Below the pieces are notes generated by a model that had not been told where the DNA came from, made no database searches, and saw only the letters and a program-made list of their open reading frames with translations. This document shows positions 7,256 through 37,175 of a stretch of DNA of 38,454 bases, piece by piece. Origin of the DNA: a virus. The first letter of the stretch is position 1; each line of letters opens with the position of its first letter. A program made the position numbers and the translations under genes. The stretch lies in the IMG/VR virus record IMGVR_UViG_3300035698_005317, positions 1-38,454 of that record; one strand, given 5' to 3'.

Positions 7256-8079
7256 GCGACCTCGGACCGTTTGCAGTCAGGGCGGGCATCCTTCAAAGGT
7301 TCCCGCACTTCATCGACCTCATGGTCAGGCAGCGGTTGGGGACCTCGGCCTACCGGCTGTGGGGAGCGCCTACCATAAACGATGCCTACGGTGACTTCGT
7401 GGGCAGCGGGGTCGGTGGCACAGGGGGCTCGATGCTCCTGACCACTCCGAAGGACCGTATCGCCCAGTCGGCACAGGCGTCTCGCGCGGGAGCTGCCCAG
7501 GCGGCGGAGAATCGGACGGGTCATGCGTGCTTCCAGCTCGACCCGGAAGACTACACTCCGTTGGTCAACGGAGATGCAGAAGTCAGCTTCTACCGGGTAC
7601 AGGAGAAGCGCGCGACGACAGGCGACTGGCTCACGGTCGTGGGCGCCATCAACAATGGGGAGCCTCTCTTGGGGCCAATCCTGCCCGTACCAGCGGGAGC
7701 GTTCTACGGGATGCAGACCGCGACGCTGGCTTTCTCCGGTATCGCCCCTTCCCTGACTGGGTGCGTGGCAGGGAAGGCTCCTGTCATCGACGAGACAGTT
7801 CAGACGCCCCTGCCCATGCACATCGCCCTTCCAAGGCCCGCTGCACGGCTTCAAATCTTCAACCACGGTGGGACTTCCGTGGGAGCCGCAGATGCGATTC
7901 TTCTCGTGTCCTTCGACCGTGGTCCGATGGTGCGGGTGTTCGCGGACGAATCTCTCGACATCGGTGGGTTCGGGCACATGGCAGGACTCGTCTCCGAAAT
8001 CTTCCTCGCGGTTGAGGATGATGCAGGCGGGCTCGAATTCTCCGTGTCTGTGGGTATCGACAGTGGTGTGGGCGGCTGA
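7252..8079 (+). CDS. Putative virion protein, 275 aa
   Basis: The family is not recognised. The ATG at 7252 overlaps the previous stop and is preceded by GAGGTGA. The protein is beta-rich with many Gly, Ala and Pro residues. It has a Gly-rich stretch at about residues 50-60 and an acidic C-terminal part ending in alternating hydrophobics (EFSVSVGIDSGVGG). No membrane helix or signal is present. The composition and its place just before three paralogous putative virion genes suggest a structural component, possibly partner to them. It shows no clear similarity to those paralogues. Confidence 0.55.
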   Translation: MSDLGPFAVRAGILQRFPHFIDLMVRQRLGTSAYRLWGAPTINDAYGDFVGSGVGGTGGSMLLTTPKDRIAQSAQASRAGAAQAAENRTGHACFQLDPEDYTPLVNGDAEVSFYRVQEKRATTGDWLTVVGAINNGEPLLGPILPVPAGAFYGMQTATLAFSGIAPSLTGCVAGKAPVIDETVQTPLPMHIALPRPAARLQIFNHGGTSVGAADAILLVSFDRGPMVRVFADESLDIGGFGHMAGLVSEIFLAVEDDAGGLEFSVSVGIDSGVGG

Positions 8080-8108
8080 TAGGCCCTCCTAACCCCCACT
8101 AGAACGGC

Positions 8109-8114
8109 TATATT
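8109..8114 (+). promoter_or_regulatory. -10-like element TATATT before the paralogue cluster
   Basis: The 102-base gap 8080-8181 holds GGCTATATTCC, matching the CTATA core seen in several other gaps, about 70 bases before the first of three paralogous genes. No matching -35 was found. Confidence 0.3.
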
Positions 8115-8181
8115 CCTGCTCTAACGAACGAAGCGGCCTGTTTGGGCCGTACCGCAACTGAAAACAGCTAGGGAGGCAGAC

Positions 8182-8985
8182 ATGCCTTACATCTGTCTTG
8201 CGCGGAACGACATCCCCAACGGCACGGTCCAAATCCTGGACCTCGTGCCCAACTCTTCTCAGAAGAGCGCGGTGTACGACCCGCCCGGCCAGACACGGTA
8301 CGTCAACCGTGTTCAGAACAACCCGGTGTACTTCACGGCGGCTGGCGCCACGACCAAGCTCGTGGAAGGGCTCTCCGCCCTTCTCGCAGACTTGGTGGAC
8401 CCCGGTGTGGGTGCGTGGACCCAAGCCAATCAGGCAACGGTCTCGGCGGCCATCATCGCCCGGCTGGATGCGGGTCTCTCGCTGGAAATCGCGGACGTGA
8501 ACACCATCATCCAGGTGTCACTGGCAGCAGCGACTCTCCCGGCAGCCAATCTCCCGGACCTGCTGGCCATCCTCGCCGGTCGCACCTATGCGATTGCGGC
8601 AGGGGCCATCAAGGGTACGGGCGGTGTTTGGAGCGCTACTCAGGCGGGCAGCTTCTTCGAGTCCTACCGGAACCCGGCAACCGAGATGGTCGCAGGGGAA
8701 ATCACCTCCGGCAGCATCGGCGGCGACCTGCGTTACCGCGAGCGTGGTGGGATTCGTCACACCTACGCGCTGGGGTCCTTCACGGCATCCATCGGGGACA
8801 GCACCCTCGTGTGCTTCACGGGAGGTTCTTCTCTGCCCGGTGGGATTGCTTCTCCGACCCTGTGGCCGGACAGCGACCGCTCGCCCCACTACCCGTGGTC
8901 GATGCAGGGTGCCTTGGCCCACGCGCAGACGCAGGTCGAGCGGGTCGTAACGGTCTACGAAGATGACGGCTCTCTCGCGAGCTGA
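8182..8985 (+). CDS. Tandem paralogue 1 of 3, putative virion protein
   Basis: This is a 267-aa protein with GGGAGG upstream of its ATG. It shares an N-terminal signature with the next two genes: RND[IL] near residue 9, then a VQ[IV]LDL-like strand, PN[ST]S near 23-26, and GQTxY near 36-40. The middle has a helical ARLDAGLSLEIADVNTII element and LLAILAGRTY. The end, RVVTVYEDDG, is again shared. Family identity beyond this is unknown. Abundant tail or head surface proteins often occur as such arrays, but no domain fixes the role. The next gene starts 14 bases downstream with its own GAGGAGG. Confidence 0.65.
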   Translation: MPYICLARNDIPNGTVQILDLVPNSSQKSAVYDPPGQTRYVNRVQNNPVYFTAAGATTKLVEGLSALLADLVDPGVGAWTQANQATVSAAIIARLDAGLSLEIADVNTIIQVSLAAATLPAANLPDLLAILAGRTYAIAAGAIKGTGGVWSATQAGSFFESYRNPATEMVAGEITSGSIGGDLRYRERGGIRHTYALGSFTASIGDSTLVCFTGGSSLPGGIASPTLWPDSDRSPHYPWSMQGALAHAQTQVERVVTVYEDDGSLAS

Positions 8986-8999
8986 GGAGGTAGCATACG

Positions 9000-9758
9000 A
9001 TGACACGCGCATACATCAGCCTGAACAGGAATGACCTGCCGGACAACCTGCTCCAGTTCGTGGACGTGACTCCGAACACTTCCCGCTTGCGTGCGGGTTC
9101 CGGCGCGGGGCAGACCGGCTATATCTCGGACACGGTCCAGAACGAACTGCCCGTTGCAGCGGGCGTCGGCCCGTTCACAGCGTCAGTGGATGTGAAGGGT
9201 CTCGCTGCGTACCTCGGGGGCAACGTCGAGGACACAGGCGGCGGAAACCTTGCTCTTCTCGCGGCAGATGCACAGACCATCGGGAACGCTATCATCGCGG
9301 CCTCGATGGCGGGCACCGCACTCGAACTGGAAGACATCAACCTCCTCATCGTCGCCACCGTGGGTGCGGGTTCCGACCTCGACGGTACGCTCGGCAACTC
9401 GACCGGTGACGTCGAAGATGTCCTCGCAATCCTCGCCGGGGCGGTCTACCGCATCGACGCGGGGACGGTCATCGCGGGTGTTGCCGGGGCCTACGCGGGC
9501 GGCAACGTTGGGGACTGGGTGAACGACGACGATGCCGACTACCGGCCCCAGCGGTACTACTTCCAGACAGGTTCCCTGAACCTGTCGGCTCTTTCCGGAC
9601 AGCTCTCGAAGCTGCAATCCGCCACCTACGAGTGGCTGAACCCGGCCATGACCTACGGGGCTGCGGGAACGGCGTTGTTCATGGACACCACCCACATCCC
9701 GGCGACCGGGATTGGCCGAGCGGTCACGGTCTACACCGCTAACGGCGAACTGCTGTAA
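9000..9758 (+). CDS. Tandem paralogue 2 of 3, putative virion protein
   Basis: This is a 252-aa protein. The same signature is present: NRNDLP near residue 10, DVTPNTS near 22-28, GQTGY, then a central ALELEDINLLI helix, VLAILAGAVYRI and a terminal RAVTVYTANGELL. It is the most acidic of the three and has Asp-rich turns (VNDDDADY). The region between the shared blocks differs from its neighbours in length and sequence, so duplication is old. The ribosome site GAGGAGG lies in the short gap after gene 1. Function is not recognised. Confidence 0.65.
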   Translation: MTRAYISLNRNDLPDNLLQFVDVTPNTSRLRAGSGAGQTGYISDTVQNELPVAAGVGPFTASVDVKGLAAYLGGNVEDTGGGNLALLAADAQTIGNAIIAASMAGTALELEDINLLIVATVGAGSDLDGTLGNSTGDVEDVLAILAGAVYRIDAGTVIAGVAGAYAGGNVGDWVNDDDADYRPQRYYFQTGSLNLSALSGQLSKLQSATYEWLNPAMTYGAAGTALFMDTTHIPATGIGRAVTVYTANGELL

Positions 9759-14354: not shown

Positions 14355-16136
14355 ATGGGATACGGGAAAACTCTCGCAGCAGGCACGAAGAAGTTGAAGT
14401 GGTCCCAAGTGACTTCGGGTCTTTCGGAGGCCACCGTTACGGTCGGCAAATTCATGGTAAACCTCACTGTGTCGAAGCAGGGGGACAAGTTTGACTGGAG
14501 GCTCACGGTCCACGGGGCTGACCGGGACAAGGGCAGCGCCAAGACCCAGAAGGCTGCCCAGACTGCCGCCGAAAAGGCGTTCAGCCAGTGGGAGAGCAAG
14601 AACAAAACAGCAGGTACGACGAAGCAGGCCGCCGTGCCCTCGACCGTGAAAGGCTTCCTGTTCGCCCTGACAGGGTGGCTGACTCAGTACGACCAGAAAC
14701 TCCAGCGCAAGCAGCCCAACATCTATCGTCTGGGGCACTTCCTGGAGGCCGTCCAGAGCGTCGAGAAGACCATGCGGCGGAACCTGAAGTCGGAGATTAC
14801 TGCTCCGGGTGTGGCTGACCGATTCATCCAGACCTTGAAGGAGGAGTTCATCTACACAGGCGCTCGCTTCGACCTCCCCCCAGTGAACAAGCTGGTGAAG
14901 GCTATCCTGAAAGGGGAAGCGCCCAACTACAAGATGGCAGGGACTACCCCGTCCCAAGAGGTCCCCATGAGCACGCTCCGAGAGGCCATCATCAGGCTGG
15001 CCAGCACCAACCCCGAGATGCGGAAGCACCTCGTTCCGCTTCTGCGGCGGACGGCTTCCCCCGCCACCGACGCCAAGAAAGAGGCTGAGGGGTGGCTGCG
15101 GAAGAACAAAATTGAGTTCAAGAAGACCAAGGCGAAGACCGTCGGGTTCTCCGACCTCGCCCGTGGGTCCAAGGTCTTTGTAGAAGTCACTCTGGTCGAG
15201 CGTCTCGGCAACGGTGTGGCCGACAAGGCTGACGCTTTCGCTAAAACCAAGGGCTTCATCTTCGACTGGACTGTCGCCAGGACTGCCGGGCGTGAGCACG
15301 GCGAAGGCGGCAAGGGCTACGGCATGAGCGGCCCGGACGTTCGCGGCCCCGGCGACAAGCCCCCTGAGGCCAAGGCCAAGTGCTTCTACGAGACCGGCGA
15401 CGAAGGCGACCGCTGCTACACCACTGAGAACGGTGGTCCGGGCGGAGCCCGTGGCGGCAAGCCTCTCCAGCGCGGTGACTGGAAGGGCTACGAGAAGAAG
15501 CGTTGGGGTGAATCCCCCGCGAAGCGGAAGAAGAGCAAGCAGATGCGCGCACGAAGCATTCAGGCGTCGGCCCGCCGAATCACCGCGAAGTGGCTCAACC
15601 GTAAGTCTGCTCTTCGGAAGCTGGCTCTCAAGCAGAACCAGTTCAAGAAGATGATGGCTACGGGAGGCACCTTCGGGGTCATCTCGGCCTACGGGCCTCT
15701 CCACAAGCACGAGAACCAGCAGCGCCACGGGCAGCTCATCGCAGACCTCCAGAAGCTCGGCTACCGAGCCAAGCCGCTCAAAGGTCAGTGGGAGGGTGTC
15801 GGTGAGAAGTCGGTCCTCGTGCGAGGCATCAACCCTGAGGTGCTGTTCAAGCTGGGGGTGAAGTACGGCCAGGACGCGACCATCTACAAGAGCAAGGATG
15901 GCGTGGTCGGGATGTACTACCCGAAGGGCGGATACGCCGAAATCGCCGTAGACCCCGACAACAACCCAGCCTTCGAGATGGCTTCCGGTGGGGAACTCTT
16001 CACGAAGGACCGCAACTGGTCCTTCGAGTTCGGTTTCCTGTGGGGCAAGCATGTCCCGTGGGACAAGAAGCACCCCATTGGGGCCAAGACCGTGAAGAAC
16101 CTCATCGACACAGGTCAGTTGTCCTTCGAGGACTGA
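14355..16136 (+). CDS. 593-aa protein with C-terminal DUF3293-like domain
   Basis: Parts in order are as follows. Residues 1-80 form a beta/helix domain with alternating strands. Residues 95-185 are helical. At about 206-226 the segment LREAIIRLASTNPEMRKHL is followed by VPLLRR. Residues 232-310 are Lys-rich. A Gly-rich segment follows (about 315-385). SIQASARRIT (401-410) matches the C-terminal motif of other proteins in this window. A final domain (about 430-593) has GVISAYGP, HGQLIADLQKLGYRAKPLKG, KSVLVRGI and VKYGQDATIYK, resembling DUF3293 proteins. A modular virion-associated protein is likely. Its 3' end overlaps a minus-strand gene by 22 bases. Confidence 0.6.
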   Translation: MGYGKTLAAGTKKLKWSQVTSGLSEATVTVGKFMVNLTVSKQGDKFDWRLTVHGADRDKGSAKTQKAAQTAAEKAFSQWESKNKTAGTTKQAAVPSTVKGFLFALTGWLTQYDQKLQRKQPNIYRLGHFLEAVQSVEKTMRRNLKSEITAPGVADRFIQTLKEEFIYTGARFDLPPVNKLVKAILKGEAPNYKMAGTTPSQEVPMSTLREAIIRLASTNPEMRKHLVPLLRRTASPATDAKKEAEGWLRKNKIEFKKTKAKTVGFSDLARGSKVFVEVTLVERLGNGVADKADAFAKTKGFIFDWTVARTAGREHGEGGKGYGMSGPDVRGPGDKPPEAKAKCFYETGDEGDRCYTTENGGPGGARGGKPLQRGDWKGYEKKRWGESPAKRKKSKQMRARSIQASARRITAKWLNRKSALRKLALKQNQFKKMMATGGTFGVISAYGPLHKHENQQRHGQLIADLQKLGYRAKPLKGQWEGVGEKSVLVRGINPEVLFKLGVKYGQDATIYKSKDGVVGMYYPKGGYAEIAVDPDNNPAFEMASGGELFTKDRNWSFEFGFLWGKHVPWDKKHPIGAKTVKNLIDTGQLSFED

Positions 16137-22435: not shown

Positions 22436-23016
22436 AGGAAGCTCGTCTCACATGCCGGACCCAGTTCTACCGTGTGGGGGACCTGAACCTGCGAATGGTG
22501 CGGGGAGAAGAACGCTTCGTGTCCGCAGAAGAGGCTCGGGCATCTTCGGACCTGCGAGTAGCGCAGAAGGCCGGAGCCATCGAGGTCCTCTTTGTGGAGC
22601 GTAGCCGGGAAATCAGGCAACCCGTTCAATCGCAGCTCCGCGTGAACGTGCCTCCCAAGTCCAAGCACGCCATCATTGGAGCGCGTCCGGTACAGGTTCC
22701 TCAAGCAGCTCCTCCTGAGCTGACCAAGGAGCAGGTGTCGGAGCTGATACGGGCACACCTCGCAGACTTCAAGGGGGACCTCTCTGTTCTCCTGCGAGAG
22801 CTACTGGGTGGGCAGACCGTTGTTCAGGCTCCTGTAGCGGGTACAGTGACACAGGCGCGGGAGAAGGCAGAAGGCCCTGAGCTTGTCTTCGTCCCTCAGC
22901 ACATCATGCGTGACCACAAGGCGGACATCTCCGTAGAAGAAACGGAGGAGTCAGGGACCGGCGTGGACGCCGCGATAGAGGCCCTGAGGGCTGCCAGAAA
23001 GAAGGAGACTCCATGA
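22432..23016 (+). CDS. Unknown protein, 194 aa, upstream of the actin-like gene
   Basis: The ATG overlaps the previous stop. The N-terminal 65 residues form a small domain (QFYRVGDLNLRMVRGEE, then helix SAEEARASSDLRVAQKAG and strand AIEVLFV). The middle is a Pro-rich linker and the rest a helical segment with ELTKEQVSELIRAHLADF. The C-terminus is acidic then basic. No family can be named. It is translationally coupled on both sides, so it should be made together with the actin-like protein and could be its partner. That link is inferred from gene order only. Confidence 0.5.
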   Translation: MKEARLTCRTQFYRVGDLNLRMVRGEERFVSAEEARASSDLRVAQKAGAIEVLFVERSREIRQPVQSQLRVNVPPKSKHAIIGARPVQVPQAAPPELTKEQVSELIRAHLADFKGDLSVLLRELLGGQTVVQAPVAGTVTQAREKAEGPELVFVPQHIMRDHKADISVEETEESGTGVDAAIEALRAARKKETP

Positions 23017-24023
23017 GCGACGAGAAGCAAGTCCCGGCCACCCTGGGAATCGGGCTCGATATTGGAACCATGAACCTCGTTTCCGCACGCCGTGGCCCCA
23101 AAGGGGTCGTGACCAAGCGTATGCGGGACGTGTTCCTCGACCTGCCCCCGAATGCCAAGAAGATGCTCAAGCTCTCCCAGACGAGCTTCGTCGAGCGTGA
23201 GGACGATGTGGTCATCCTCGGGGACGCCGCTCTGGAGACTGCCAACGTCTTCGGCAAGGAGCCGCGCCGTCCGCTGAAAGCCGGGCTCGTGTCGCCGGAG
23301 GAGTCTGACAGCCTCGAAATCCTGGGCCTCCTCATCAAGGAGGTCCTGGGACCGCCGAAGGTCAAGAATGAGGTCTGTTACTACTCAGTGCCCGCCGCGC
23401 CCATCGACCAACCCGAGAAGGACATCATCTACCACCGGGCAGTGTTCGAGCGCATTGTGGCGGAGTGCGGGTACCGGGGCATCGCCTCGAACGAGGGCAT
23501 GGGAATCATCTATGCCGAGACGGCAGCGGACCAGTTCTCAGGCATCGCTCTGAGCTTCGGGTCCGGCATGACCAATGTGGCTCTGGCCATCAACACTATC
23601 GAGGGCCTCACTTTCTCTGTCGCCCGTGGCGGCGACTGGATGGACCAGGGAGCGGCTCAGTCTACAGGTTCGACACAGGCTCGGGTCTGCGCCATCAAGG
23701 AGCGGGGCATCGACCTCACGAATCCTCAGGGGCGTGTGCAAGAGGCTCTGGCCTTCTACTACCGGGCGCTCATCGACTACGCCATCGACCAGATTGAGGA
23801 ACGGTTCAAGTCCGTGGCAACACAGTTCGCGCTTTCGAAGCCCATCCCGATTATCGTTTCGGGTGGCACGAGCAAGGCGGGTGGCTTCATGGACCTCTTC
23901 AACGAGGTCTTCGAGGCCAAGCGCAAGCGGTTCCCAATCGAAATTTCCGAAGTACGGCACGCAGCGGAGCCGCTCAACGCGGTGGCGATGGGGATGCTGG
24001 TTCTGGCAACACAGGAGGACTGA
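23013..24023 (+). CDS. Actin-like ATPase (MreB/ParM superfamily)
   Basis: This is a 336-aa protein, the usual size for ParM or MreB. Phosphate-1 motif: LGIGLDIGTMN (11-21, with D16). Phosphate-2 region: ALSFGSGMTNVAL, where S181-F-G replaces the usual D-x-G. Adenosine motif: IIVSGGTSKAGGF (about 280-292). VCYYSVPAAPID and GYRGIASNEGMGIIYAE match the subdomain linking these motifs in archaeal and bacterial ParM/MreB-like proteins. It probably binds ATP and may polymerise; phage or plasmid relatives move DNA or particles. Finding it inside the neck cluster, coupled to both neighbours, is unusual. The loss of Asp at phosphate-2 may alter hydrolysis. Confidence 0.85.
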   Translation: MSDEKQVPATLGIGLDIGTMNLVSARRGPKGVVTKRMRDVFLDLPPNAKKMLKLSQTSFVEREDDVVILGDAALETANVFGKEPRRPLKAGLVSPEESDSLEILGLLIKEVLGPPKVKNEVCYYSVPAAPIDQPEKDIIYHRAVFERIVAECGYRGIASNEGMGIIYAETAADQFSGIALSFGSGMTNVALAINTIEGLTFSVARGGDWMDQGAAQSTGSTQARVCAIKERGIDLTNPQGRVQEALAFYYRALIDYAIDQIEERFKSVATQFALSKPIPIIVSGGTSKAGGFMDLFNEVFEAKRKRFPIEISEVRHAAEPLNAVAMGMLVLATQED

Positions 24024-26824: not shown

Positions 26825-29800
26825 ATGAGTTTCCTGCAAGAAGCCTATGCACCTCCGGGCGTTTACGTCCAGACGGATTTCGAGAATCCGCTCGCGGCTG
26901 CTCTCACCTCCCTCAAGATTCCGGTCTTCATCGGAGAGGGTAGTGAACTGCTCGACCAGACGGACCTTGAACTCGTTCGCGGCAGCTCCTCTTCGGTGGA
27001 CCAGCGCCGTGTGGACGAGGACGAGACGGGTCGTGCGGTGGTCAGCATCTCCGCAACGGGTGTGGTGACACGCGGGGCCTTCGATGGCGCGTTGGACAAG
27101 TTCCAAGTCCAGCACTTCCCCATCGTGACAGGTAACGGCACGGGCAGTACCTCGAACAGCCGGACCAATGTGAGCGTCACCATCAACGGGGACCCCATCG
27201 TAGTTCGCAATGTCTTGGGCGTGAGCGGAGTCATCCAGCTTGCCCAGGCTCCCGAGCCCGGCGATGCAGTTCTCTGCACCTACTACTTCAACCGCACGGA
27301 CACCCTCGTCATGGACAACGTGAGCGAGCAGGTGGACCCGGACACGGCAGTCGTGCGTGCAGGCTCCGGCTTGCTCGACAGCGACTCCCCCGGCAGTGTG
27401 GGTGGTGCAGGTGGTGGGGCGGAGACGCTCGACATTCACGGTGACATCCTCGACGCCAATGGCACGGTCATCGTCGAGAACAACAACACCCTGAGTCTGA
27501 CTGTGGACGGCACGGACGTGGAAATCGTCCTGCCTGTGCGCAGCGACTACAAGATGTCCCAAGTGGCTTCGGCCATCACGGCGGCGAAGAAGGGCACCCT
27601 GACGGGCGGCACTTTCGTCAACCAGTACGGCCAGTCCACCCTGATGCTCGTGTCGGACCACAGCGTTGTGGTGAACGAAGGCACGGCCAACGGCATTCTC
27701 GGTCTCCTCACGGGGCAGGCGGACACCCGAACCTCGACCTTCTACACCTTCCAAGGCCCTATCGTCACGGGCGACAATGGTGGTGTGACTACGACCGACC
27801 CGAGCCACGTCACGGTGAAGGTGAACGGCGTCCAGGTCATTCCGACCAGCGTGGACGGCTCCAGCCGTGCGGTAACGTTGGCTCAGTCCCCGAAGGCGGG
27901 CGCGACGGTCTCCATCGCGTACTACTTCAACTCCTGGCAGGACACGTTCGACTACCTCCAGAACAGCAACGTCGCGAGCGTCTCGCGCTGTGGCGATGTC
28001 CCCGGAGGCTCGGGCTACACGCAGGGTTCCGACTTCATCCTCCAGGACGACAAGATTCTGTGGGGCACGGCGAGCGTGGTCGAAAGCGGCACGCATTCCA
28101 CGGGCTCGCAGTATTTCGGGGAACGTCAGGTCTCGACTTCCCTCATCGACAACCGCACCTTCCTCGACGCCTGCTCTTCGGTCACGCTCAGCTCGGGCGG
28201 CGTCTCTGTGGCGAGCAAGCGCAGCTTCACCCTGCCCCTGAGCCCCACGCTGGGAAACGGGCGCAACACCCCGCTCGGCAGCAGCCTGTACCAGACGGTG
28301 GCCAATGGACGCATCGACGTCCCGGTCAACCGCCCGGACGTGGTGTGGGCCTACTGGGGCTGGGATGAACAGGACGCTCTCGACCGAGGCAAGGTCGATG
28401 TTCTCAAAGTCGAAGGCAACATCATCACCCTGGGTGAGAGTGTGCCGGTCGGCGCGACGGTCTACGCGACCTTCTACTACAACCAAATCGAAGACGCGGA
28501 GTACACGCTGACTTGCGTGAACCCCGGCCTCTCCGGCACCGGCACCTACAGTGCCGAGGATGCCCTCGGGGATGAGGTCTTCGGGGCCTTCTACAACCCG
28601 GCAACCAAGGGTTCTGGGCTCACGGGCGTCAGCATCGAATTCCCCTCGGGCTCCGAGTTGACTCCGGACCTTCGTTTCGAGGCGGTGTCCGGCAATGACT
28701 TCGCCGGTCCGGTCGAGGAAATTGTCACGGTTCAATTCGCTACCAAGCTGGCGACTCCGGCGAAGTACAGCGTGCCCGGTTCTGGTCCGTATAGCTTCAT
28801 CCCGACCTACTCGGACCATCTCGCGGTCAAGGTCGGCGGCGTGAACATCTCCTCCACGGCTGGCCTCGACCTCCAGAATCCCTCGGGGTTCAACTCGGGC
28901 TTCCTCGCCACCATGCTGAGCGCGGAAATCGAGTACGACGGCAACGGTGTCGGCATCGTGGGCGAGTCCTACGAAGTGGATGTCTCGCAGGAGTTCGTCA
29001 TCACCGTGGACGGCACGGACGTGGAAGTGTCTACCGGCACCTCGCTGGTCCAAGCGGTGGACATCAGCTTCTTCGCGAACGCCATCAATGAGGCGGCCAA
29101 CGGACATCAGTCCACAGCGGACGGTGGCGGTGTGGCCTCCATCGAGCTGGACATCACCACGCGGCGCGACGTGCTCAACGGCTACGTCGGCTGGCGGGTC
29201 GTCATCGGTACAGGTGCGGCAGCGGCCACGGCAGGTCAGTATGCCACGGTCACGGCCTACAACCCGACCACGGGCGTCTGCACGATGGACGGCAACTGGG
29301 TTGGCGGCGCGGTCATCGCAACGGACCCCTACTACATCTACAACCCCGAAGCGCGTTCCGCGATGCCTACCGTGACCTCGTTCAACGGTCCGGTGGCTCT
29401 GGCAGCGGGAGCCTTCACTTCCCTGCGCGTCGCCTACACGGGTGACGTGGCTGGGCTCCTCACCTTCGAAGCGACCATCGGAGCAGGTCCCTTTGCTACC
29501 CCGAGCGCGATGGCGACCGAGGTACAGGCGCAGCTCGCAACGGTCATCACTGCGGGTGTGGCTCTTTCTCCGAACCATGCGGGTCTGGCCATCGAGGTCG
29601 TCGCCAATGCCAACGCTGAGTTGGAGTTCCGGCTCCAGCTCCCTGGTCTCGACAGCATGGGCTTCATCCAGTTCATCGAAGCCTCCGGTGGCCGTGTGGC
29701 CGACTTCGCCGCACTCGCGGGCCTCGACGTGGGCACCGCAGTTGGACAGGGTCAAGCGGCTCTGCTCCAGTGCCCCATCGCTCGCACCTACGAAGTGGCG

Positions 29801-32134
29801 GGGACTGGCGGCGAGAAGCCTTACGACAGGCTCATCCTCCGCAACCGCCTTCTGCCGGGACGCGGCGGCTGGCAGGCTCCGTGGAAGGTGCTGTCGAACG
29901 CAAGCCTGTACGTCAAGGTCGGCAACGACATGGCGGGCATCGAGACGGCGGACTTCGCAATGCCGGGTGTCTCGGCGGCTGTGGTCCCCGCAACCGTGGC
30001 AGGGTACATCAACCTGCTGGGCGGCATGGACACGGTCACTTCGGAGCCTCAGGTCACGTTCTACGACGGGACCGGTACGAAGCCCGCGAACAACGAGTTC
30101 AGCTTCGAGATGGACGGCAACCCCGTCACGGTGACGTTCACGGGTGACGCCAACGGCACGCCCACGGACCTCGGCCCGATGGCGGGTACGGGCAACGGCT
30201 CCATCCTCGACCAAATCATCGACGCGATGGAAGCAGTCCCCGGCGCTCCTTGGGGCACGGCACCGGAAATCTACGCCGCACGCCTCGTGTGGTCCGACGG
30301 CGCGGGTATCCGTCTCACGGGCGACAAATACGACACGACGGGTCGTATCACCATCGGCAGCGGGAGCGCGAACAGCACTCTTGGTTTCACCTCCGGCACG
30401 TCCGCGATGCGGACCACGGTGGACCCGAAGGTTCTGGCTTCGGCCCTCATGTCGAACCAGCACACCGCGTTCGCCAGTTGGATGTTCAACGTCGTCCTCT
30501 CCTCCACCAGCGTCTTCGCCAACGTCGCGCTGGCAGGGACCATCGAGGATGCCGCTGGGCAGGAGTACCTGTACCTGCAAGACGCAGCTTCGGCTGTGGG
30601 CAACCTCGGAGCCTCTTCGGTCATCGGCCTGTTCGATACCTTCCAGAGCATCGCAAACGCGCTGCGCTACGACGCTGGTCTCGAAGCAGAGAGTGGTGAC
30701 GGCGCGGTGGGAGAAGCGGCTCTCAACGGCTTCGTGGTCACGTCGAGCAACCCGAGCGGGTCCGGGTCGGTCAACGATTCGATTCTCGACGACGGCGTAG
30801 GCCAGGACGGCATGGTCGGCCAGACCTACCGTGACTCGGTAACGGGCCTGACTTTCACCCTCCTTCCGCGTGGCTGGTCCTCGAATCAGACGGGTCCGTG
30901 GATTGCGTACCCGGTCGGCGCCCTCGCGACCTTCCGTATCAACTGCTCCAAGACGTTCACGACGGACGCCAACATTCCGCACAACGCCCTTCCGGGCGTC
31001 GAGCTGAAGGTGTCGAATACGGAGACCGTTGCGGCAGGGGACACGGCCATCGTGAGCACCTATCCGCGTGGCGGGTACGAGCCGACCATCGGAGACCTCT
31101 ACTACGTCTCCTACGACTACCTGAAGCAGGGCTTCGCAACGGCCTTCTACACGAAGCTGTCCACCATCGAGGCGAACTACGGCGCGGCGACCCCGGACTA
31201 TCCGGTTAGCCTCGCTTCCAACCTCTGCGTCCTGAACGGTGCGATGCTCGTCGGCATCAAGCAGGTCCTCAAGGAGACGGGCTCCTCGCAGGCCAGCCTC
31301 ACCAGCTACGTCCAGGCTATCACCGACCTCGAAGGTGTGCTGGCCGGTCAGGTCCAGCCCGACATCATCACTCCGCTACGGGGCGATTCCATCGAGCTGT
31401 ACCAGATTCTCAAGCGCAGCAACGCCATCCAGTCGAGCATTCGCTACCGGGCGGAACGCACGAGTATCGTGGGCGTCAGCGCCGGGACTACCCCGGAGCA
31501 GGTGCAGTCGATGGCTCAGGTGCTCGGGGAAACTCGAATGCGGGTCGTCTACCCGGACATGGTCGTCATCCAGCTCCAGGACCAGTTCAACAACACGAGC
31601 GAGGCGCTCATCGACGGTACCTACGTCGCAGCGGCTATGGCGGGTTCGGTCGTGAGCCCCAATGTGGACGTAGCAACACCGTGGACGGGCCGCCGTCTGG
31701 TTGGCTTCTCCCGGCTCGGGCGCAACCTGGATGCGGTCCAGCAGAATCAGGTCGCGGTCAGGGGCGTCACGGTCCTGATTGACCAGTCTCCGTTCCTCCG
31801 GGTTCGTCATGGCCTCACGACGGACATGACCAACGTGCTGACCAAGATTCCTACGGTCATCTTGATTGCCGATGAGGTTCAGCAGCGGTCCCGCCGCACC
31901 CTGGACAACTTTGTTGGCGTCAAGTACCTGCCGGGGGTGTTGACTCAGGTCGAGGGTCGTCTGGCGATGATGCTCAAGGGCCTCGTGGCCTCGCAAATCA
32001 TCAGCGCCTACACGGGTGTATCGGCAGCGGCGGACAAGGATGACCCGACGACCGCAACGGTGGAGGCGTACTACAGCCCGGTCTTCCCGCTGCTGTACCT
32101 CATCCTGAGCTTCCACATGCGGAGCAGCCTGTAG
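26825..32134 (+). CDS. Tail sheath protein, unusually large (1769 aa)
   Basis: This protein forms the contractile outer sheath of the tail. The N-terminus has APPGVYVQTDF (8-18), the usual sheath start. The conserved C-terminal domain lies at about 1480-1769, with TTPEQVQSMAQVLGETRM, RRLVGFSRLGRNL, VTVLIDQSPFLRVRHGLTT and EGRLAMMLKGLVASQI. T4 gp18 is 659 aa, so about 1000 residues are extra. They include repeats: VxVxxNG...VxLAQxPxxGAxVxxxYYFN at about 116-161 and 329-375, a weaker copy at 525-560, and two TVDGTDVE modules (223-, 724-). These probably form surface domains. A hairpin follows the gene. Confidence 0.93.
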   Translation: MSFLQEAYAPPGVYVQTDFENPLAAALTSLKIPVFIGEGSELLDQTDLELVRGSSSSVDQRRVDEDETGRAVVSISATGVVTRGAFDGALDKFQVQHFPIVTGNGTGSTSNSRTNVSVTINGDPIVVRNVLGVSGVIQLAQAPEPGDAVLCTYYFNRTDTLVMDNVSEQVDPDTAVVRAGSGLLDSDSPGSVGGAGGGAETLDIHGDILDANGTVIVENNNTLSLTVDGTDVEIVLPVRSDYKMSQVASAITAAKKGTLTGGTFVNQYGQSTLMLVSDHSVVVNEGTANGILGLLTGQADTRTSTFYTFQGPIVTGDNGGVTTTDPSHVTVKVNGVQVIPTSVDGSSRAVTLAQSPKAGATVSIAYYFNSWQDTFDYLQNSNVASVSRCGDVPGGSGYTQGSDFILQDDKILWGTASVVESGTHSTGSQYFGERQVSTSLIDNRTFLDACSSVTLSSGGVSVASKRSFTLPLSPTLGNGRNTPLGSSLYQTVANGRIDVPVNRPDVVWAYWGWDEQDALDRGKVDVLKVEGNIITLGESVPVGATVYATFYYNQIEDAEYTLTCVNPGLSGTGTYSAEDALGDEVFGAFYNPATKGSGLTGVSIEFPSGSELTPDLRFEAVSGNDFAGPVEEIVTVQFATKLATPAKYSVPGSGPYSFIPTYSDHLAVKVGGVNISSTAGLDLQNPSGFNSGFLATMLSAEIEYDGNGVGIVGESYEVDVSQEFVITVDGTDVEVSTGTSLVQAVDISFFANAINEAANGHQSTADGGGVASIELDITTRRDVLNGYVGWRVVIGTGAAAATAGQYATVTAYNPTTGVCTMDGNWVGGAVIATDPYYIYNPEARSAMPTVTSFNGPVALAAGAFTSLRVAYTGDVAGLLTFEATIGAGPFATPSAMATEVQAQLATVITAGVALSPNHAGLAIEVVANANAELEFRLQLPGLDSMGFIQFIEASGGRVADFAALAGLDVGTAVGQGQAALLQCPIARTYEVAGTGGEKPYDRLILRNRLLPGRGGWQAPWKVLSNASLYVKVGNDMAGIETADFAMPGVSAAVVPATVAGYINLLGGMDTVTSEPQVTFYDGTGTKPANNEFSFEMDGNPVTVTFTGDANGTPTDLGPMAGTGNGSILDQIIDAMEAVPGAPWGTAPEIYAARLVWSDGAGIRLTGDKYDTTGRITIGSGSANSTLGFTSGTSAMRTTVDPKVLASALMSNQHTAFASWMFNVVLSSTSVFANVALAGTIEDAAGQEYLYLQDAASAVGNLGASSVIGLFDTFQSIANALRYDAGLEAESGDGAVGEAALNGFVVTSSNPSGSGSVNDSILDDGVGQDGMVGQTYRDSVTGLTFTLLPRGWSSNQTGPWIAYPVGALATFRINCSKTFTTDANIPHNALPGVELKVSNTETVAAGDTAIVSTYPRGGYEPTIGDLYYVSYDYLKQGFATAFYTKLSTIEANYGAATPDYPVSLASNLCVLNGAMLVGIKQVLKETGSSQASLTSYVQAITDLEGVLAGQVQPDIITPLRGDSIELYQILKRSNAIQSSIRYRAERTSIVGVSAGTTPEQVQSMAQVLGETRMRVVYPDMVVIQLQDQFNNTSEALIDGTYVAAAMAGSVVSPNVDVATPWTGRRLVGFSRLGRNLDAVQQNQVAVRGVTVLIDQSPFLRVRHGLTTDMTNVLTKIPTVILIADEVQQRSRRTLDNFVGVKYLPGVLTQVEGRLAMMLKGLVASQIISAYTGVSAAADKDDPTTATVEAYYSPVFPLLYLILSFHMRSSL

Positions 32135-32986: not shown

Positions 32987-33169
32987 CTAGGACTTGATTT
33001 CCGTGACCTTCTTCCGCAGGCGGTCGCAGGTCTTCTTCGTGTCCATGAGGCCCGCGCGAACGCGCGTTCCCGCCGCCTTGTTGCCGGAGTCGAGCTTCGT
33101 GGCGTCCTCTTTGAGGGCGGCGACGCTTGCTTCGAGAGCTTCGATTTCGGCCAGCATGTTCTGTTCCAT
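32987..33169 (-). CDS. Histone H1-like (Hc1-type) small protein
   Basis: This is a 60-aa protein on the minus strand. The start at 33169 is set by GGAGGATA immediately upstream. The sequence is a helix (EQNMLAEIEALEASVAAL) followed by GNKAAGTRVRAGLMDTKK and a basic end. GNKAAxxRxR with a following basic helix is the signature of bacterial Hc1-type histone H1-like proteins, which bind and compact DNA. The protein is shorter than chlamydial Hc1 and lacks its long Lys-rich tail. It diverges from the MerR gene, so the two may share a control region. A plain coiled coil is the alternative. Confidence 0.65.
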   Translation of the reverse strand: MEQNMLAEIEALEASVAALKEDATKLDSGNKAAGTRVRAGLMDTKKTCDRLRKKVTEIKS

Positions 33170-33255
33170 AAGTATCCTCCTGGATTGAGCCGCTTCATTG
33201 CGACTCCTATACCTACTCCCCTGAGCGAAAAACCAACCTACTTGCTCCTGGCACC

Positions 33256-33284
33256 TTGACAGTTCTCGACAGTGGCGGTAGGGT
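33256..33284 (+). promoter_or_regulatory. Sigma-70-like promoter of the MerR/VIT-VWA operon
   Basis: TTGACA (33256-33261) is followed after 17 bases by TAGGGT (33279-33284), so the -35 is a perfect consensus and the spacing is optimal. It lies 23 bases before the MerR gene ATG. This is the clearest promoter in the window. The 17-base spacer carries CTCGACAGTGG and is a candidate site for MerR-type autoregulation. Confidence 0.75.
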
Positions 33285-33306
33285 CTCCCTAGATTCTGGA
33301 GGACGC

Positions 33307-33717
33307 ATGGCAGACAAGACTTACACGCTGATGGAGCTGGGGGATGCCACCCATCTCTCCGCCCGCACAATTCGCTACTACATCACACAGGACTTGCTTC
33401 CTGGACCCGTGGGGCAGGGGCGAACTGCTCACTACACCGAATTCCACAAGCAAGTCCTCACCGACATTGCTCTCCTCAAAGCGGAGGGCAAGGGCCTCGA
33501 CCAGATTCGTCGGATTCACGAAGACCGCATGTCGGTCCTCTGGAAGAAGGTCCCCAAGCCCGACGGCAATTGGGACCAGTTTGTATTGGCTGGCGATGTG
33601 ACTGTTCAGTTCCGGTCGGGAATGGTGGCGCATCGCAGGCATCAAGTAATGCACGCCCTCGGAGAGTTCGAGAGGGCCGTGAAACAAGAACAGACACACG
33701 AGGAGGACTCGCCATGA
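33307..33717 (+). CDS. MerR-family transcription regulator
   Basis: This is a 136-aa protein with GGAGG four bases before the ATG at 33307. YTLMELGDATHLSARTIRYY then ITQDLLPGP (residues about 6-34) is the MerR winged helix-turn-helix, and HYTEFHKQVLTDIALLK followed by GKGLDQIRRI is its second part. The rest is short with no obvious effector or metal-binding domain, so the sensing signal is unknown. The stop overlaps the VIT-VWA gene (ATGA), so both are co-translated. It most likely controls its own operon from the promoter at 33256-33284. Confidence 0.88.
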   Translation: MADKTYTLMELGDATHLSARTIRYYITQDLLPGPVGQGRTAHYTEFHKQVLTDIALLKAEGKGLDQIRRIHEDRMSVLWKKVPKPDGNWDQFVLAGDVTVQFRSGMVAHRRHQVMHALGEFERAVKQEQTHEEDSP

Positions 33718-36281
33718 CTTTCGGAACCGCAGCCCAGATGGCCCATACGGTGTTGGACGCTCAGACGCGCCAGCCGGTGGAACTCGCCATGCAGCACCTT
33801 GACCTTACGGGCCGAGCCAATCCAGCGGGGGCGTTCCTTCGGGCAACGCATCGCTTCCAGTGCAAGGGAGACAAGCCCCTCGAAGCCTTGTACGTCTTCC
33901 AGCTCCCCAGGCAGGGCACGTTGCGGCGCTTCGTCGTCAAGGGCCAGGACTTCGAGATGGCGTCCAAGCTGAGCCCCCGCGTGAAGGCCCGCAAGGAATA
34001 CGAGGAGGGCGTCCAGGACGGGCACCTGTCTGTCCTGGCTGAGTCGTCTCTGGACGGCCTCGTGACCCTCTCTGTCGGGCAGATTCGCCCAGGGGAAGAG
34101 GTCACGGTCATCGTGGACCTCGCAGTGGGCGTCGAGCCCGAAGATGGCAAGTTCCGTTTCCGTTACCCCTTCACCCTCGCGCCCAACTACCACGCACAGG
34201 CCAAGGCGAGCGGTGGCACGTTGGAGTTGCCGGAGGACATCTTCGGGGACCTCATCCTCCCCGAGTGGAAGGACAAGGCTGACGGCCTGCATCAGATTTC
34301 GTTCCGCCTTCACGTCGAGGCTGGCGGCACGCTGGGTTCCGTGGGGTCCCCTTCCCACAAGGTCGAGATTCAGCCCAACGATGACGGCAGCGCCGACGTG
34401 TTCCTCGCGGGCAACAACACTGTCCCCAACGGCGACCTCGTCGTGGACGTGAAGGTGCGTGAGGCAGCTCCGACCCTGTTCATCGACGAGTCCTTCGATA
34501 CGAAGCTGCCCAAGAGCGCTCCCCGCTGGACGGCAAGCATCCCGTCCAGCATCATCCCGAAAGCCTCGGCGGCTCCTCGGCGTGTGTGCTTCCTGCTGGA
34601 CCGCTCCGGTTCCATGAGCGGCTCCCGCATCGAGCGGGCAGTCGCGGCCCTCGACGCCATGCTCGCCGGGCTCGCCCCCGAAGACGAATTCGGTCTCGTG
34701 GCCTTCGGCTCGACCACCGTGGCCTTCGACGAAAAGATGGGCAACGCGACTGACGTGAACCGGGACCGTGCCCGCAAGTGGCTCGCAGAAGGCAGGTGCC
34801 TCGGCGGGACCAACATGGTCTCTGCGCTGCGGAAAGCCGTGGACGTGCTGGGCGGACCCGGCGCAGACATCATGCTTCTGACCGATGGCGAGGTTTGGAA
34901 TACCGGCCCCCTCGTCGAGCAGGCAGCGGCTTCGGGCTCGCGTATCCACGTCCTCGGTATTGGTGAGGCGGCGCAGGACCGTTTCCTCGAAAGCCTCTCT
35001 CGTCGGACGCAGGGTGTCTCGAAGATGGTCAGCGTCAACGAGGACGTGGCGAGTGCGTCTCTCCAGCTCTTCTCTGCCGTGCGCCACCCTGTCCAGATGG
35101 ACGTAGAAGCCATCGTTACGACGGGCAAGAAGATGCAGACGAGCCTCGTCAAGACCGTGTGGGACGGCAGGCCGGTACTCCTCACCGACACCGGCAAGAC
35201 GGGCAAGTCCCGTCCGACCAGCGTGAAGTTCAAGTGGGCGGGCGGAGAGAAGACCGTCAAGCTCGACATGGTGTTCCAGACACCCAACGGCTTGTCCGCC
35301 ATCATGTGGGCGGCACGGCAGCTCTCCGACCTCGACAGCGCCATCGACATGATGGGGGGAACTGAACAACTGGGGAGCCAGCCCCTCATGAAGGAGATGG
35401 AAGACCTCTCCACAGCCTACGGGATGGCGAGCCGGGCCATGAGCCTGTGTGCTGTCGTGGAACGTCTCGGGGACCAAGTCGGTGAGCAGCCTGTCCAGCA
35501 GGTCGTCCCGGTGATGATGCCTTCGGACATGACGGGTGAGAAGAACACCGTGGCAGCTCTGTGCCTTAGCCTGAGTTCGCGTGTGGGCGGTGCTTCGGGG
35601 CAGAGTCTTCGAGGGGACGTCTACTACAGCATGGACTTCGCGCCCAAGAACTTCGCGCCTACTCGTGGTGTTCGTTCTCGCTGCGTCGGCTTCCAGGCCG
35701 ATGCCCTCATCGGTTGCAGCGTGGACAACACGGGCCTCCCGAACCTCGGCACCACCCAGGACTGCGCCAGAGGTGTCGATAACGACACCTACAAGAGCGT
35801 GACGATTGGCGAGATGAGCGAGAGGGGGCTGGGTGAGAGGATGGATGGGAGCCTCGTCGCTACTGTCGGCCACCTGATGGCTGATGGCGGGATGCCGGGG
35901 ACCACGAAGGAGCTGCGCTACGCCAAGACCGTGGTGCTCGCTCTCGCCCTGCTCAAGCTCGACGTGGCGGCGTTCGCGCCGCTGTACTCGACCCACCGCA
36001 ACCGCATCGCGGACTTCATCGAGGCCAATCGGGATAAGACTGAGGCCGACCCCTGGATGGACACTTTCCTGCTGATGCTGCGGGCGGGGAATGCCTCGGT
36101 CCCCAACGGAGACTGGGATGGCCGCTATCTCGCTCTCGTGAGGTCCTCCGACACCTCGGAGATGACCGAAGCCTTCGAGGCTCTGGTCAAGGAAGCTCGG
36201 TTCTGCGTTCTCCCCACCCCTGACCGCTCGAATCCCTCAATAGTCCTCCAATCCGTTCCTCTTCATAGGACACTCGACTGA
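33714..36281 (+). CDS. VIT-VWA domain protein, 855 aa
   Basis: The ATG at 33714 is preceded by AGGAGG at seven bases. Residues about 10-140 form a VIT domain (ALYVFQLPRQGTLRRFVVKG, then ARKEYEEGVQ and VTLSVGQIRPGEEVTVIVDL). Residues about 290-460 form a VWA domain with a complete MIDAS: D296-x-S298-x-S300, T366 and D391. Such metal-dependent sites bind protein partners. A C-terminal part of about 250 residues is not recognised. No signal peptide is seen, so it acts in the cytoplasm or on the particle. VIT-VWA proteins are bacterial and eukaryotic; finding one between phage sheath and tube genes is unexpected. Confidence 0.92.
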   Translation: MTFGTAAQMAHTVLDAQTRQPVELAMQHLDLTGRANPAGAFLRATHRFQCKGDKPLEALYVFQLPRQGTLRRFVVKGQDFEMASKLSPRVKARKEYEEGVQDGHLSVLAESSLDGLVTLSVGQIRPGEEVTVIVDLAVGVEPEDGKFRFRYPFTLAPNYHAQAKASGGTLELPEDIFGDLILPEWKDKADGLHQISFRLHVEAGGTLGSVGSPSHKVEIQPNDDGSADVFLAGNNTVPNGDLVVDVKVREAAPTLFIDESFDTKLPKSAPRWTASIPSSIIPKASAAPRRVCFLLDRSGSMSGSRIERAVAALDAMLAGLAPEDEFGLVAFGSTTVAFDEKMGNATDVNRDRARKWLAEGRCLGGTNMVSALRKAVDVLGGPGADIMLLTDGEVWNTGPLVEQAAASGSRIHVLGIGEAAQDRFLESLSRRTQGVSKMVSVNEDVASASLQLFSAVRHPVQMDVEAIVTTGKKMQTSLVKTVWDGRPVLLTDTGKTGKSRPTSVKFKWAGGEKTVKLDMVFQTPNGLSAIMWAARQLSDLDSAIDMMGGTEQLGSQPLMKEMEDLSTAYGMASRAMSLCAVVERLGDQVGEQPVQQVVPVMMPSDMTGEKNTVAALCLSLSSRVGGASGQSLRGDVYYSMDFAPKNFAPTRGVRSRCVGFQADALIGCSVDNTGLPNLGTTQDCARGVDNDTYKSVTIGEMSERGLGERMDGSLVATVGHLMADGGMPGTTKELRYAKTVVLALALLKLDVAAFAPLYSTHRNRIADFIEANRDKTEADPWMDTFLLMLRAGNASVPNGDWDGRYLALVRSSDTSEMTEAFEALVKEARFCVLPTPDRSNPSIVLQSVPLHRTLD

Positions 36282-36302
36282 CGGGAAACACCCCGTTAGT
36301 CG
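36275..36302 (+). terminator. Hairpin at the end of the VIT-VWA gene
   Basis: CGACTGACGGG (36275-36285) pairs with CCCGTTAGTCG (36292-36302) with one G-T wobble around a 6-base loop. The stem begins in the last codons of the VIT-VWA gene. No T run follows. It would separate the inserted operon from the tube gene. Confidence 0.55.
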
Positions 36303-36305
36303 GCC

Positions 36306-36311
36306 TATACA
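36306..36311 (+). promoter_or_regulatory. -10-like element TATACA before the tube gene
   Basis: GCCTATACATT lies just after the hairpin and 54 bases before the tube gene's ATG. It shares the CCTATA form with gaps at 22, 10789 and 18733. No -35 is clear. Confidence 0.35.
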
Positions 36312-36365
36312 TTCTGTAGAGTGAGCGTGTTCGTGTACGAATCGTCCCAGAGACGGAGGACTTAG

Positions 36366-37175
36366 ATGGCTGGCAACAAGGACTTGAACCCACAATCGGG
36401 TGTCGGCGGTGACTCTTACCTGTACGACATGGGGACGTCGCCCAATACTCGCACGGCGGTTTCTCAGAAGGTTCGCATCCTGACGCCTCACTTTGGTGAC
36501 GCGACGGCGATGCACCAGATGGGGGTGCTCTCGACATTCAGCCCCACGGAGTCGCGGGCCATCGAGCCAGTGCGTGGCATCGGCTTCGGGGACCAAGTAG
36601 CGGAGCAGGTGCCGGGCGTTACGGAGCCTGTGACGGCTTCGTTCGAAAGGGCTCTCCTCTACTTGTGCAACTTGTGGCAGGCCACAGGCTATGCCGCAGG
36701 CGTGTCCGGTCCTGTCCGGTCGCTCAAGCACCACAAGTGGCCCTTCGACATCGAGCAGCAGCTCGTGTTCTCGACGCAGGCCGATATAGACCTCGGTGCC
36801 GAGAACGAGGGCAAGTCCGGTGCAGGGATGCAGGCGGGGATGAAGGCCATCAAGTTCCCGAAAGTCGTCGGCAGCTCGGGAGGCGAAGGGCACACCGCAC
36901 TCATCACCGTGTACGAGGCGTGCTGGTTCACGTCGTGGTCGGCATCCTTCGCGAAGGACGCTGGGGTCATCATGGAGTCGGGCGACGTGAGCGTCTCCGA
37001 TGTCCACGACTTCAACTCGGTCTACGGCGAATTCCTCCAGTCGGGCAATGACCCGACCCTCGGGCAGCTCGGCTCCATCCGCTACTCGGAGAATCCCGGC
37101 AAGTACGGCAAGTTCGTGACCAGCGTAGGTAGCGGTGTCCCTGCCCAGAGCGACGTGCAATTCACCACACCGTAG
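36366..37175 (+). CDS. Tail tube protein
   Basis: This is a 269-aa protein that forms the inner tail tube. GGAGG lies six bases before the ATG. The conserved tract ESRAIEPVRGIGFGDQVAEQVPG, then TEPVTASFERALLYLCNLWQATGY and RSLKHHKWPFDIEQQLVFS, is one I associate with contractile-phage tube proteins of the gp19-like class. In contractile phages sheath and tube genes are usually adjacent; here about 4.2 kb of accessory genes lie between them. Confidence 0.85.
   Translation: MAGNKDLNPQSGVGGDSYLYDMGTSPNTRTAVSQKVRILTPHFGDATAMHQMGVLSTFSPTESRAIEPVRGIGFGDQVAEQVPGVTEPVTASFERALLYLCNLWQATGYAAGVSGPVRSLKHHKWPFDIEQQLVFSTQADIDLGAENEGKSGAGMQAGMKAIKFPKVVGSSGGEGHTALITVYEACWFTSWSASFAKDAGVIMESGDVSVSDVHDFNSVYGEFLQSGNDPTLGQLGSIRYSENPGKYGKFVTSVGSGVPAQSDVQFTTP

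What the first reader, a model, noticed from the sequence alone, without database searches (positions are those of the whole stretch)
33256..36281. MerR regulator overlapping a VIT-VWA protein, inserted between sheath and tube genes
A consensus -35 with 17-bp spacing drives a MerR gene overlapping by ATGA a cytoplasmic VIT-VWA protein with an intact MIDAS (D296, S298, S300, T366, D391). The pair sits between sheath and tube, which are normally adjacent in contractile phages. It has its own promoter, a terminating hairpin and a divergent histone-like gene, so it looks like a self-contained module. VIT-VWA proteins bind other proteins through metal; a phage one could act in host take-over, defence against other phages, or as a particle component. 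I know of no described phage system of this make-up.
Basis: partly seen in the sequence, partly recalled or inferred. Interest (0 to 1): 0.85.

Follow-up and report, generated by a model that had tools for sequence, protein, structure and literature searches.

The report
Self-regulated MerR–VIT-VWA operon in huge phages
Some very large bacterial viruses carry, between two tail genes, a removable two-gene cassette (a switch protein plus a metal-binding scaffold protein related to a human intracellular protein family) that also occurs in bacterial genomes and plasmids with similar control sites; what it does to the cell is unknown.

Summary
The pair is real. MerR (33307-33717) overlaps by ATGA a VIT-VWA protein (33714-36281) with an intact MIDAS, between sheath (26825-32134) and tube (36366-37175). 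It is no assembly error: all 18 viral loci found with the VIT-VWA protein have MerR directly upstream, and 16 of 18 have the tube gene downstream (two contigs end inside the gene). Near relatives lack exactly this segment (3.6 kb in L008; the pair alone in L009), so it looks like a dispensable cassette, not a virion gene. The same pair sits in Myxococcota-type chromosomes (14 of 30 loci inspected) and on two betaproteobacterial plasmids, with no widely shared third gene in 15 bacterial loci compared. GACA(C/G)T half-sites near the MerR −35 element occur in 10 of 12 phage and 13 of 15 bacterial upstream regions (background 3-4%); attempts to sharpen or extend this motif gave mixed or negative results. 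The predicted protein has the layout described for intracellular VWA5A/Vwa1 proteins. Best reading: an old, probably autoregulated accessory module making a cytosolic metal-dependent protein binder whose target is unknown. I found no description of it in the paper searches made.

The parts
33230..33306 (+). promoter-like region and predicted operator: TTGACAGT (33256) and CGACAGT (33267) half-sites, -35 TTGACA, RBS GGAGG
   Evidence: read directly; half-sites in 10 of 12 phage MerR upstream regions; the only GACAGT pair within 30 bases in the window
33307..33717 (+). MerR-family regulator, 136 aa, short C-terminal region
   Evidence: PF13411 E 8e-10; directly upstream of VIT-VWA in 18 of 18 viral loci
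33714..36281 (+). VIT-VWA protein, 855 aa: VIT, VWA about 290-457 with MIDAS, further sheet and helices, disordered linker about 595-713, helical C-terminal region 711-827
   Evidence: Pfam, alignment of 14, AlphaFold2 model mean pLDDT 66.7, Foldseek best match ITIH1 6fpy E 3.6e-31
36276..36303 (+). hairpin after VIT-VWA, no T run (possible terminator)
   Evidence: fold z -3.69 for 36270-36330; not listed by the terminator scan
26825..32134 (+). tail sheath, 1769 aa (left border of the variable interval)
   Evidence: C-terminal 311 aa match annotated tail sheaths
36366..37175 (+). tail tube (right border)
   Evidence: homologue of phage G gp179; tube fold Z 10.2 on a low-confidence model
32987..33169 (-). 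Hc1-like gene, resident of the same interval but not part of the module
   Evidence: PF07432 E 1.6e-15; present in relatives without the pair

Best explanation
An autoregulated two-gene accessory cassette. Shown by comparison: MerR and VIT-VWA are neighbours in one direction with stop/start overlaps or gaps of at most 26 nt in 17 loci examined; the pair is present or absent as a unit between sheath and tube in close relatives; the region upstream of MerR carries GACA(C/G)T half-sites, often over the -35, in phage and bacterial copies alike. Inferred: the two genes are co-transcribed and translationally coupled; the MerR protein binds these sites and controls its own promoter, more likely as a repressor, because the -35/-10 spacing is 16-18 rather than the 19-20 bp of classical MerR-activated promoters (recalled) and a half-site covers the -35. 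Inferred: VIT-VWA is an intracellular, metal (MIDAS)-dependent protein-binding scaffold of the VWA5A/Vwa1 layout, perhaps gated by its C-terminal region. Inferred and least certain: it acts in the infected cell (host manipulation, stress response or competition with other mobile elements), not in the particle.
For: MerR directly upstream in 18 of 18 viral loci and in the bacterial locus L162; tube downstream in 16 of 18, the other two contigs ending in the gene. Overlaps or short gaps. L175 (pair) against L008 (no pair): the segments next to the gap are 84% and 87% identical and the sheath DNA 93%, and 3.6 kb holding promoter, MerR, VIT-VWA and a PLD-like gene is missing; L009 lacks the pair but keeps the PLD-like gene. 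Half-sites in 10 of 12 phage and 13 of 15 bacterial upstream regions against 3.9% and 3.3% of random windows of the same loci; TTGACA is followed by (G/C)T in only 17 of 179 cases in 29 phage loci without the pair in view. Exact tandem half-sites: the only hit in a 435-kb phage record, a 75.8-kb phage record and a 4.1-Mb genome is this promoter; in the window too. No widely shared third neighbour in 15 bacterial loci. VIT tree: the 13 phage copies plus L162 form one 100/100 clade. GC3 of VIT-VWA 0.811 against tube 0.815 and MCP 0.811 (MerR is lower, 0.701): long resident. MIDAS invariant in 14. The model's order of parts matches the Vwa1/VWA5A description, including disordered linker and helical C-terminal region.
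Against: No binding or expression data; the operator is inferred from sequence. Two of 12 phage and 2 of 15 bacterial upstream regions lack a half-site. Exact tandem repeats are absent from 5 of 7 phage records that carry the pair. The tool's reversed control pattern hit all 8 records (9 hits); 3 of these hits are the same promoters, since the reversed word is part of the motif, the rest lie elsewhere, so the repeat's rarity proves little and only its location counts. The palindrome form fits 11 of 15 bacterial but only 3 of 12 phage sites and neither plasmid copy. A forward test failed: 3 of 3 exact 13-mer core sites in 59 related genomes are not upstream of a pair. TTGACA is also the generic -35 box. 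The constant place beside the tube gene could hint at a tail-related role. No target of VIT-VWA is known.
Confidence: 0.58

Rival explanations
1. VIT-VWA is a tail-assembly factor or cochaperone, by analogy with the MoxR-vWA pairs of jumbo phages and ATV, hence its place next to the tube gene.
For: Position about 72-195 bp before the tube in 11 of 13 phages measured (987 and 1319 bp in the other two). MoxR-vWA chaperones for virion assembly are proposed in group 2.2 jumbo phages (PMC7824862, passages).
Against: A close relative with near-identical tube and 93% identical sheath DNA lacks the pair; a broken copy persists in L010/L011; own promoter-like site; no MoxR (PF07726) in 7 of 7 phage records, though six are only 74-142 kb long and all may be fragments.
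Confidence: 0.12
2. Regulatory cross-talk: the phage MerR binds the host's homologous operator and the phage VIT-VWA replaces or blocks the host protein, so the cassette reprograms a host MerR-VIT-VWA operon.
For: Phage and bacterial upstream regions share GACA(C/G)T half-sites; a bacterial MAG carries a copy nested inside the phage clade, so phage and bacterium seem to have exchanged it.
Against: Hosts of these phages are unknown; the left operator arm is degenerate in phages (3 of 12 score at least 12/16 against 11 of 15 bacterial); not tested.
Confidence: 0.2
3. A recently captured host housekeeping gene pair carried passively.
For: Bacterial homologues exist.
Against: The branch between the phage clade and the other bacterial copies is about 3 changes per site (1.98 and 0.99 on the two sides of the drawing root); VIT-VWA composition matches the phage; MIDAS kept; patchy in bacteria (60 of 282 genomes have a match at E<=1e-40).
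Confidence: 0.06
4. Assembly or binning artefact joining bacterial DNA to a phage contig.
For: None found.
Against: The same arrangement in 16 viral records, about 13 of them distinct.
Confidence: 0.01

Closest known systems
Intracellular VIT-VWA proteins of the VWA5A/BCSC-1 and Dictyostelium Vwa1 clade
   Same: Order VIT, VWA flanked by further sheets, helices, disordered linker, helical C-terminal region; MIDAS (description from passages of PMC10539598)
   Different: Encoded by tailed phages and coupled to a MerR regulator; no direct sequence comparison with VWA5A was run; partner unknown
ITIH heavy chain (PDB 6fpy)
   Same: Best solved-structure match, E 3.6e-31 over 622 columns, 14% identity
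   Different: ITIH is extracellular and, per PMC10539598 passages, lacks the C-terminal domain
Inter-alpha-trypsin family proteins of giant amoeba viruses (Fadolivirus, Terrestrivirus, Tupanvirus)
   Same: Near full-length fold matches, E 3.7e-43 to 7.9e-37
   Different: Eukaryotic viruses; 16-18% identity; whether they sit beside a MerR gene was not examined
MerR + 'VIT and VWA domain-containing protein' pairs on Massilia and Aquabacterium plasmids and in Myxococcota-type chromosomes
   Same: Same two genes and order; genes overlap on both plasmids; half-sites upstream in 13 of 15 chromosomal copies examined (this includes L162)
   Different: Chromosomal copies other than L162 form a separate clade; plasmid copies were not put in the tree; annotated only by domain, no function given
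MoxR-vWA chaperone pairs and TerF vWA of jumbo phages
   Same: VWA proteins in large phages
   Different: The term 'VIT domain' does not occur in the review PMC7824862 (term search); no MoxR found here

Membership tests
VIT-VWA superfamily | VIT domain followed by VWA domain | tested here: met
   Pfam over the curated cut-offs
VIT-VWA superfamily | MIDAS metal site DxSxS...T...D | tested here: met
   invariant in 14 aligned proteins
VWA5A/Vwa1 intracellular subgroup | disordered linker and helical C-terminal domain after the VIT-VWA core | tested here: inconclusive
   model shows this layout (595-713 under pLDDT 50, helices 711-827 at about 53-79); homology of the C-terminal region itself was not tested
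MerR regulators | MerR-type winged HTH at the N terminus | tested here: met
   PF13411 39.1 bits against cut-off 21.6
MerR regulators, classical activators | target promoter spacer of 19-20 bp (recalled) | tested here: not met
   17 bp in the window (18 by the scan's choice); 16-17 bp read by eye off aligned relatives; promoters are not mapped
NCBIfam TIGR03788 marine sortase target | score over the family cut-off (551.65 bits) | tested here: not met
   199.9 bits
MoxR-vWA chaperone system | MoxR AAA+ partner | tested here: inconclusive
   PF07726 absent from 7 of 7 phage records with the pair, but the records may be fragments
Known anti-phage defence systems (PADLOC) | match of both proteins to one system | tested here: not met
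   VIT-VWA none; MerR only a weak match to mad1, E 1.7e-05

The most novel reading that the evidence does not exclude
A new two-gene sensor or conflict system shared by bacterial chromosomes, plasmids and huge phages: the VIT-VWA protein senses an intruder or host component through its MIDAS, the coupled MerR sets its level from a dedicated operator, and phages carry it to exclude rivals or to override the host copy.
Probability: 0.3. Interest if true: 0.82.

Novelty: new variant of a known kind. Interest (0 to 1): 0.58.

Why it matters
It adds an apparently undescribed, conserved two-gene unit found in phages, plasmids and chromosomes, built around a protein layout known from a human tumour-suppressor protein and an amoebal development protein whose biochemical role is unclear. 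With a predicted operator, a natural empty site in close relatives and a plasmid-borne bacterial copy (Massilia) as a tractable model, its regulation and binding partner become directly testable. Giant amoeba viruses and huge phages both carry proteins of this fold.

Tried and rejected
Plain-sequence scans of viral contigs and genome contigs with the window VIT-VWA confirmed nothing; the reach came from the tube query and then the alignment query. No homologue in the INPHARED phage collection for the window protein or for the Massilia protein. A forward test of the operator core failed, 3 of 3. The tandem-repeat search matched 2 of 7 phage records and the one bacterial genome, while its reversed control matched 8 of 8; one search shows that 3 of those control hits are the promoters themselves. 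The tube profile found no meaningful solved structure by sequence. The listings of paper searches showed no paper on a MerR-VIT-VWA pair or a phage VIT protein; most listed papers were not opened (for instance the two bacterial hits, PMC6168606 and PMC6199725); one search was swamped by unrelated words and says nothing. PMC10539598 and PMC7824862 were read as passages only; in PMC7159879 a whole-word term search found no MerR and no VIT. That G178 is Sandaracinus is recalled from genome size; (listing and start of abstract) gives 10.33 Mb for it, no more.

Rows dropped: in the VIT tree L171, L173, L174, L176, L177, L179 and L212 as duplicates, truncated or frame-broken. In one search the three T5orf172-fused phage MerRs (L167, L169, L178) were listed apart from the 12; 2 of those 3 have an exact half-site. 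L059 was left out of the tube alignment because its translation had stops. The 14 bacterial loci taken further are those with a MerR. The figure 14 of 30 is for L184-L213: the best matches for which loci were returned and six more, with flanks of at most 1.5 kb (some cut by the contig end, such as L197) and a MerR profile built from phage copies, so it may miss some.
Full report
WHAT IS THERE. The window is a 38,454-base virus record. Its sheath gene (26825-32134) and tube gene (36366-37175) enclose a 148-aa gene, a DUF2158 gene, an Hc1-like gene on the other strand, and the MerR/VIT-VWA pair. The sheath C-terminus matches annotated tail sheaths of Tunturiibacter phage Tunturi_5 and Bacillus phage G; the tube gene matches phage G gp179, directly after sheath gp178, and its low-confidence model aligns best to tail tubes. 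The major capsid protein is 83% identical to that of an uncultured 485-kb phage, 49% to Tunturi_5 and 39% to phage G.

THE PAIR IS CONSERVED. A profile of six phage VIT-VWA proteins (A1) recovered 18 viral loci. All 18 carry MerR directly upstream; 16 carry the tube gene downstream and the other two contigs end inside the gene. Some of the 18 are near-duplicate records (L169/L174/L173, L170/L171, L176/L179). Stop and start codons overlap or lie within 26 nt in 17 loci examined. In some phages MerR is fused to an N-terminal T5orf172/MUG113 domain (L002 and L014 by Pfam; L016 by its alignment).

THE PAIR IS A REMOVABLE CASSETTE. Among 33 tube relatives with at least 59% identity (L002-L034), 8 records carry the pair, some of them duplicates of one another; several of the 33 do not show the whole interval. 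Where it is in view, the sheath-tube interval ranges from 137 bp to more than 8 kb. On a tube tree of 35 rows (14 with the pair) the label needs 5 changes; bootstrap had not fully settled. L175 and L008 align up to L175:9502 / L008:9457 and again from L175:13109 / L008:9463; the missing 3.6 kb holds promoter, MerR, VIT-VWA and a PLD-like gene. L009 lacks the pair but keeps the PLD-like gene. In L010/L011 the VIT-VWA gene is broken by an internal deletion, identical in two records. Together these argue against an essential virion role.

BACTERIAL COPIES. A search of 282 genomes of the phylum of the bacterial record L162 gave matches at E<=1e-40 in 60. Of 30 bacterial loci inspected, 14 have MerR directly upstream on the same strand. 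Over 15 bacterial neighbourhoods (those 14 plus L162), only MerR and VIT-VWA are shared widely; apart from one ABC-type gene of L162 shared with two loci, the repeats listed lie inside the pair or overlap it in other frames (the list showed at most 14 entries a locus, each shared by two or more others). Annotated plasmids of Massilia and Aquabacterium carry the pair with overlapping genes; a third plasmid hit opened, in Rhizobium, has a sortase partner and no MerR. In the VIT tree the 13 phage copies form one 100/100 clade together with the bacterial L162 copy, which is nested inside at 99/91, so that bacterium probably received it from a phage; the 14 other MerR-linked bacterial copies fall, with one copy whose upstream side is cut by the contig end (L197), in one 99/96 clade.

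REGULATION. GACA(C/G)T half-sites lie in 10 of 12 phage and 13 of 15 bacterial upstream regions (random windows 3.9% and 3.3%), and two or more within 24 bases in 6 of 12 and 9 of 15 (0.25% and 0.6%). The loci are related, so the binomial values printed there overstate the evidence. Because TTGACA is also a -35 box, I compared what follows it: (G/C)T follows in 17 of 179 TTGACA sites of 29 phage loci without the pair. In bacteria the sites fit a palindrome centred just upstream of the -35 (11 of 15 at 12 or more of 16 positions, background 1.0%); phages mostly keep the right arm and only 3 of 12 reach 12; the two plasmid copies score 10 and 9, although the Massilia promoter shows the words TTGACAGT and ACTGTCA by eye. 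The exact tandem pattern matched in 3 of 8 records, once each and at this promoter: 2 of 7 phage records (435 and 75.8 kb) and the 4.1-Mb bacterium. The reversed control matched in 8 of 8 records, 9 hits; 3 of these are the same promoters, the others lie outside the fetched loci. So rarity is not the argument; location is. An attempt to predict new pairs from an exact core failed in 3 of 3. The 16-18 bp spacing and the overlap with the -35 suggest repression by MerR; this is inference.

THE VIT-VWA PROTEIN. AlphaFold2 (14 sequences, mean pLDDT 66.7, pTM 0.62) gives sheets around a VWA domain, a helical stretch and strand, a disordered linker (595-713) and a helical C-terminal region. Foldseek's best solved match is ITIH1; the best viral matches are near full-length proteins of giant amoeba viruses. 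PMC10539598 (passages) describes the same order for intracellular Vwa1/VWA5A, with the C-terminal domain on a long disordered loop and proposed to autoinhibit. So the phage protein may work like an intracellular protein-binding scaffold; membership in the VWA5A subgroup is plausible but untested at the C-terminal region.

VERDICT. Its regulation is supported by sequence only, with some results against; its cellular target is open. I file it as a new variant built from known parts: the listings of the paper searches made showed no prior description of the pair.

Noticed in passing
window 23013-24023: A volactin-family (archaeal actin-like, as I recall) protein, PF25216 E 2e-79, conserved at 62-70% identity upstream of the sheath in relatives L024-L031, L164 and L172 (32% in L067). 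The one paper listed for volactin plus phage is on Haloferax motility (listing).
   Followed up: partly
L010/L011 (same as L176/L179) about 7111-9017: VIT-VWA gene broken by the same internal deletion in two records: part of the VWA domain is lost and the frame changes.
   Followed up: partly
L002:6495-7220, L014:6669-7355: MerR fused to an N-terminal T5orf172/MUG113 domain upstream of VIT-VWA.
   Followed up: no
L002:3957-5948, L008:2028-3407, L013:4166-5914, L020:3535-4914: Large proteins with a ROS/MucR-like zinc finger directly after the sheath gene; L032 has one below the cut-off. They may be homing nucleases that make this interval a cargo site (guess).
   Followed up: no
L162:9443-12346: A bacterial MAG contig carries a phage-type MerR-VIT-VWA pair nested inside the phage clade.
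   Followed up: partly
window 26825-32134: Very large tail sheath (1769 aa), far longer than usual (recalled); only its C-terminal part was matched to known sheaths.
   Followed up: no
window 14355-16136 and 4260-6872: A 593-aa protein with a DUF3293 domain and an 870-aa protein with a SWIM zinc finger, neither with a PHROG match.
   Followed up: no
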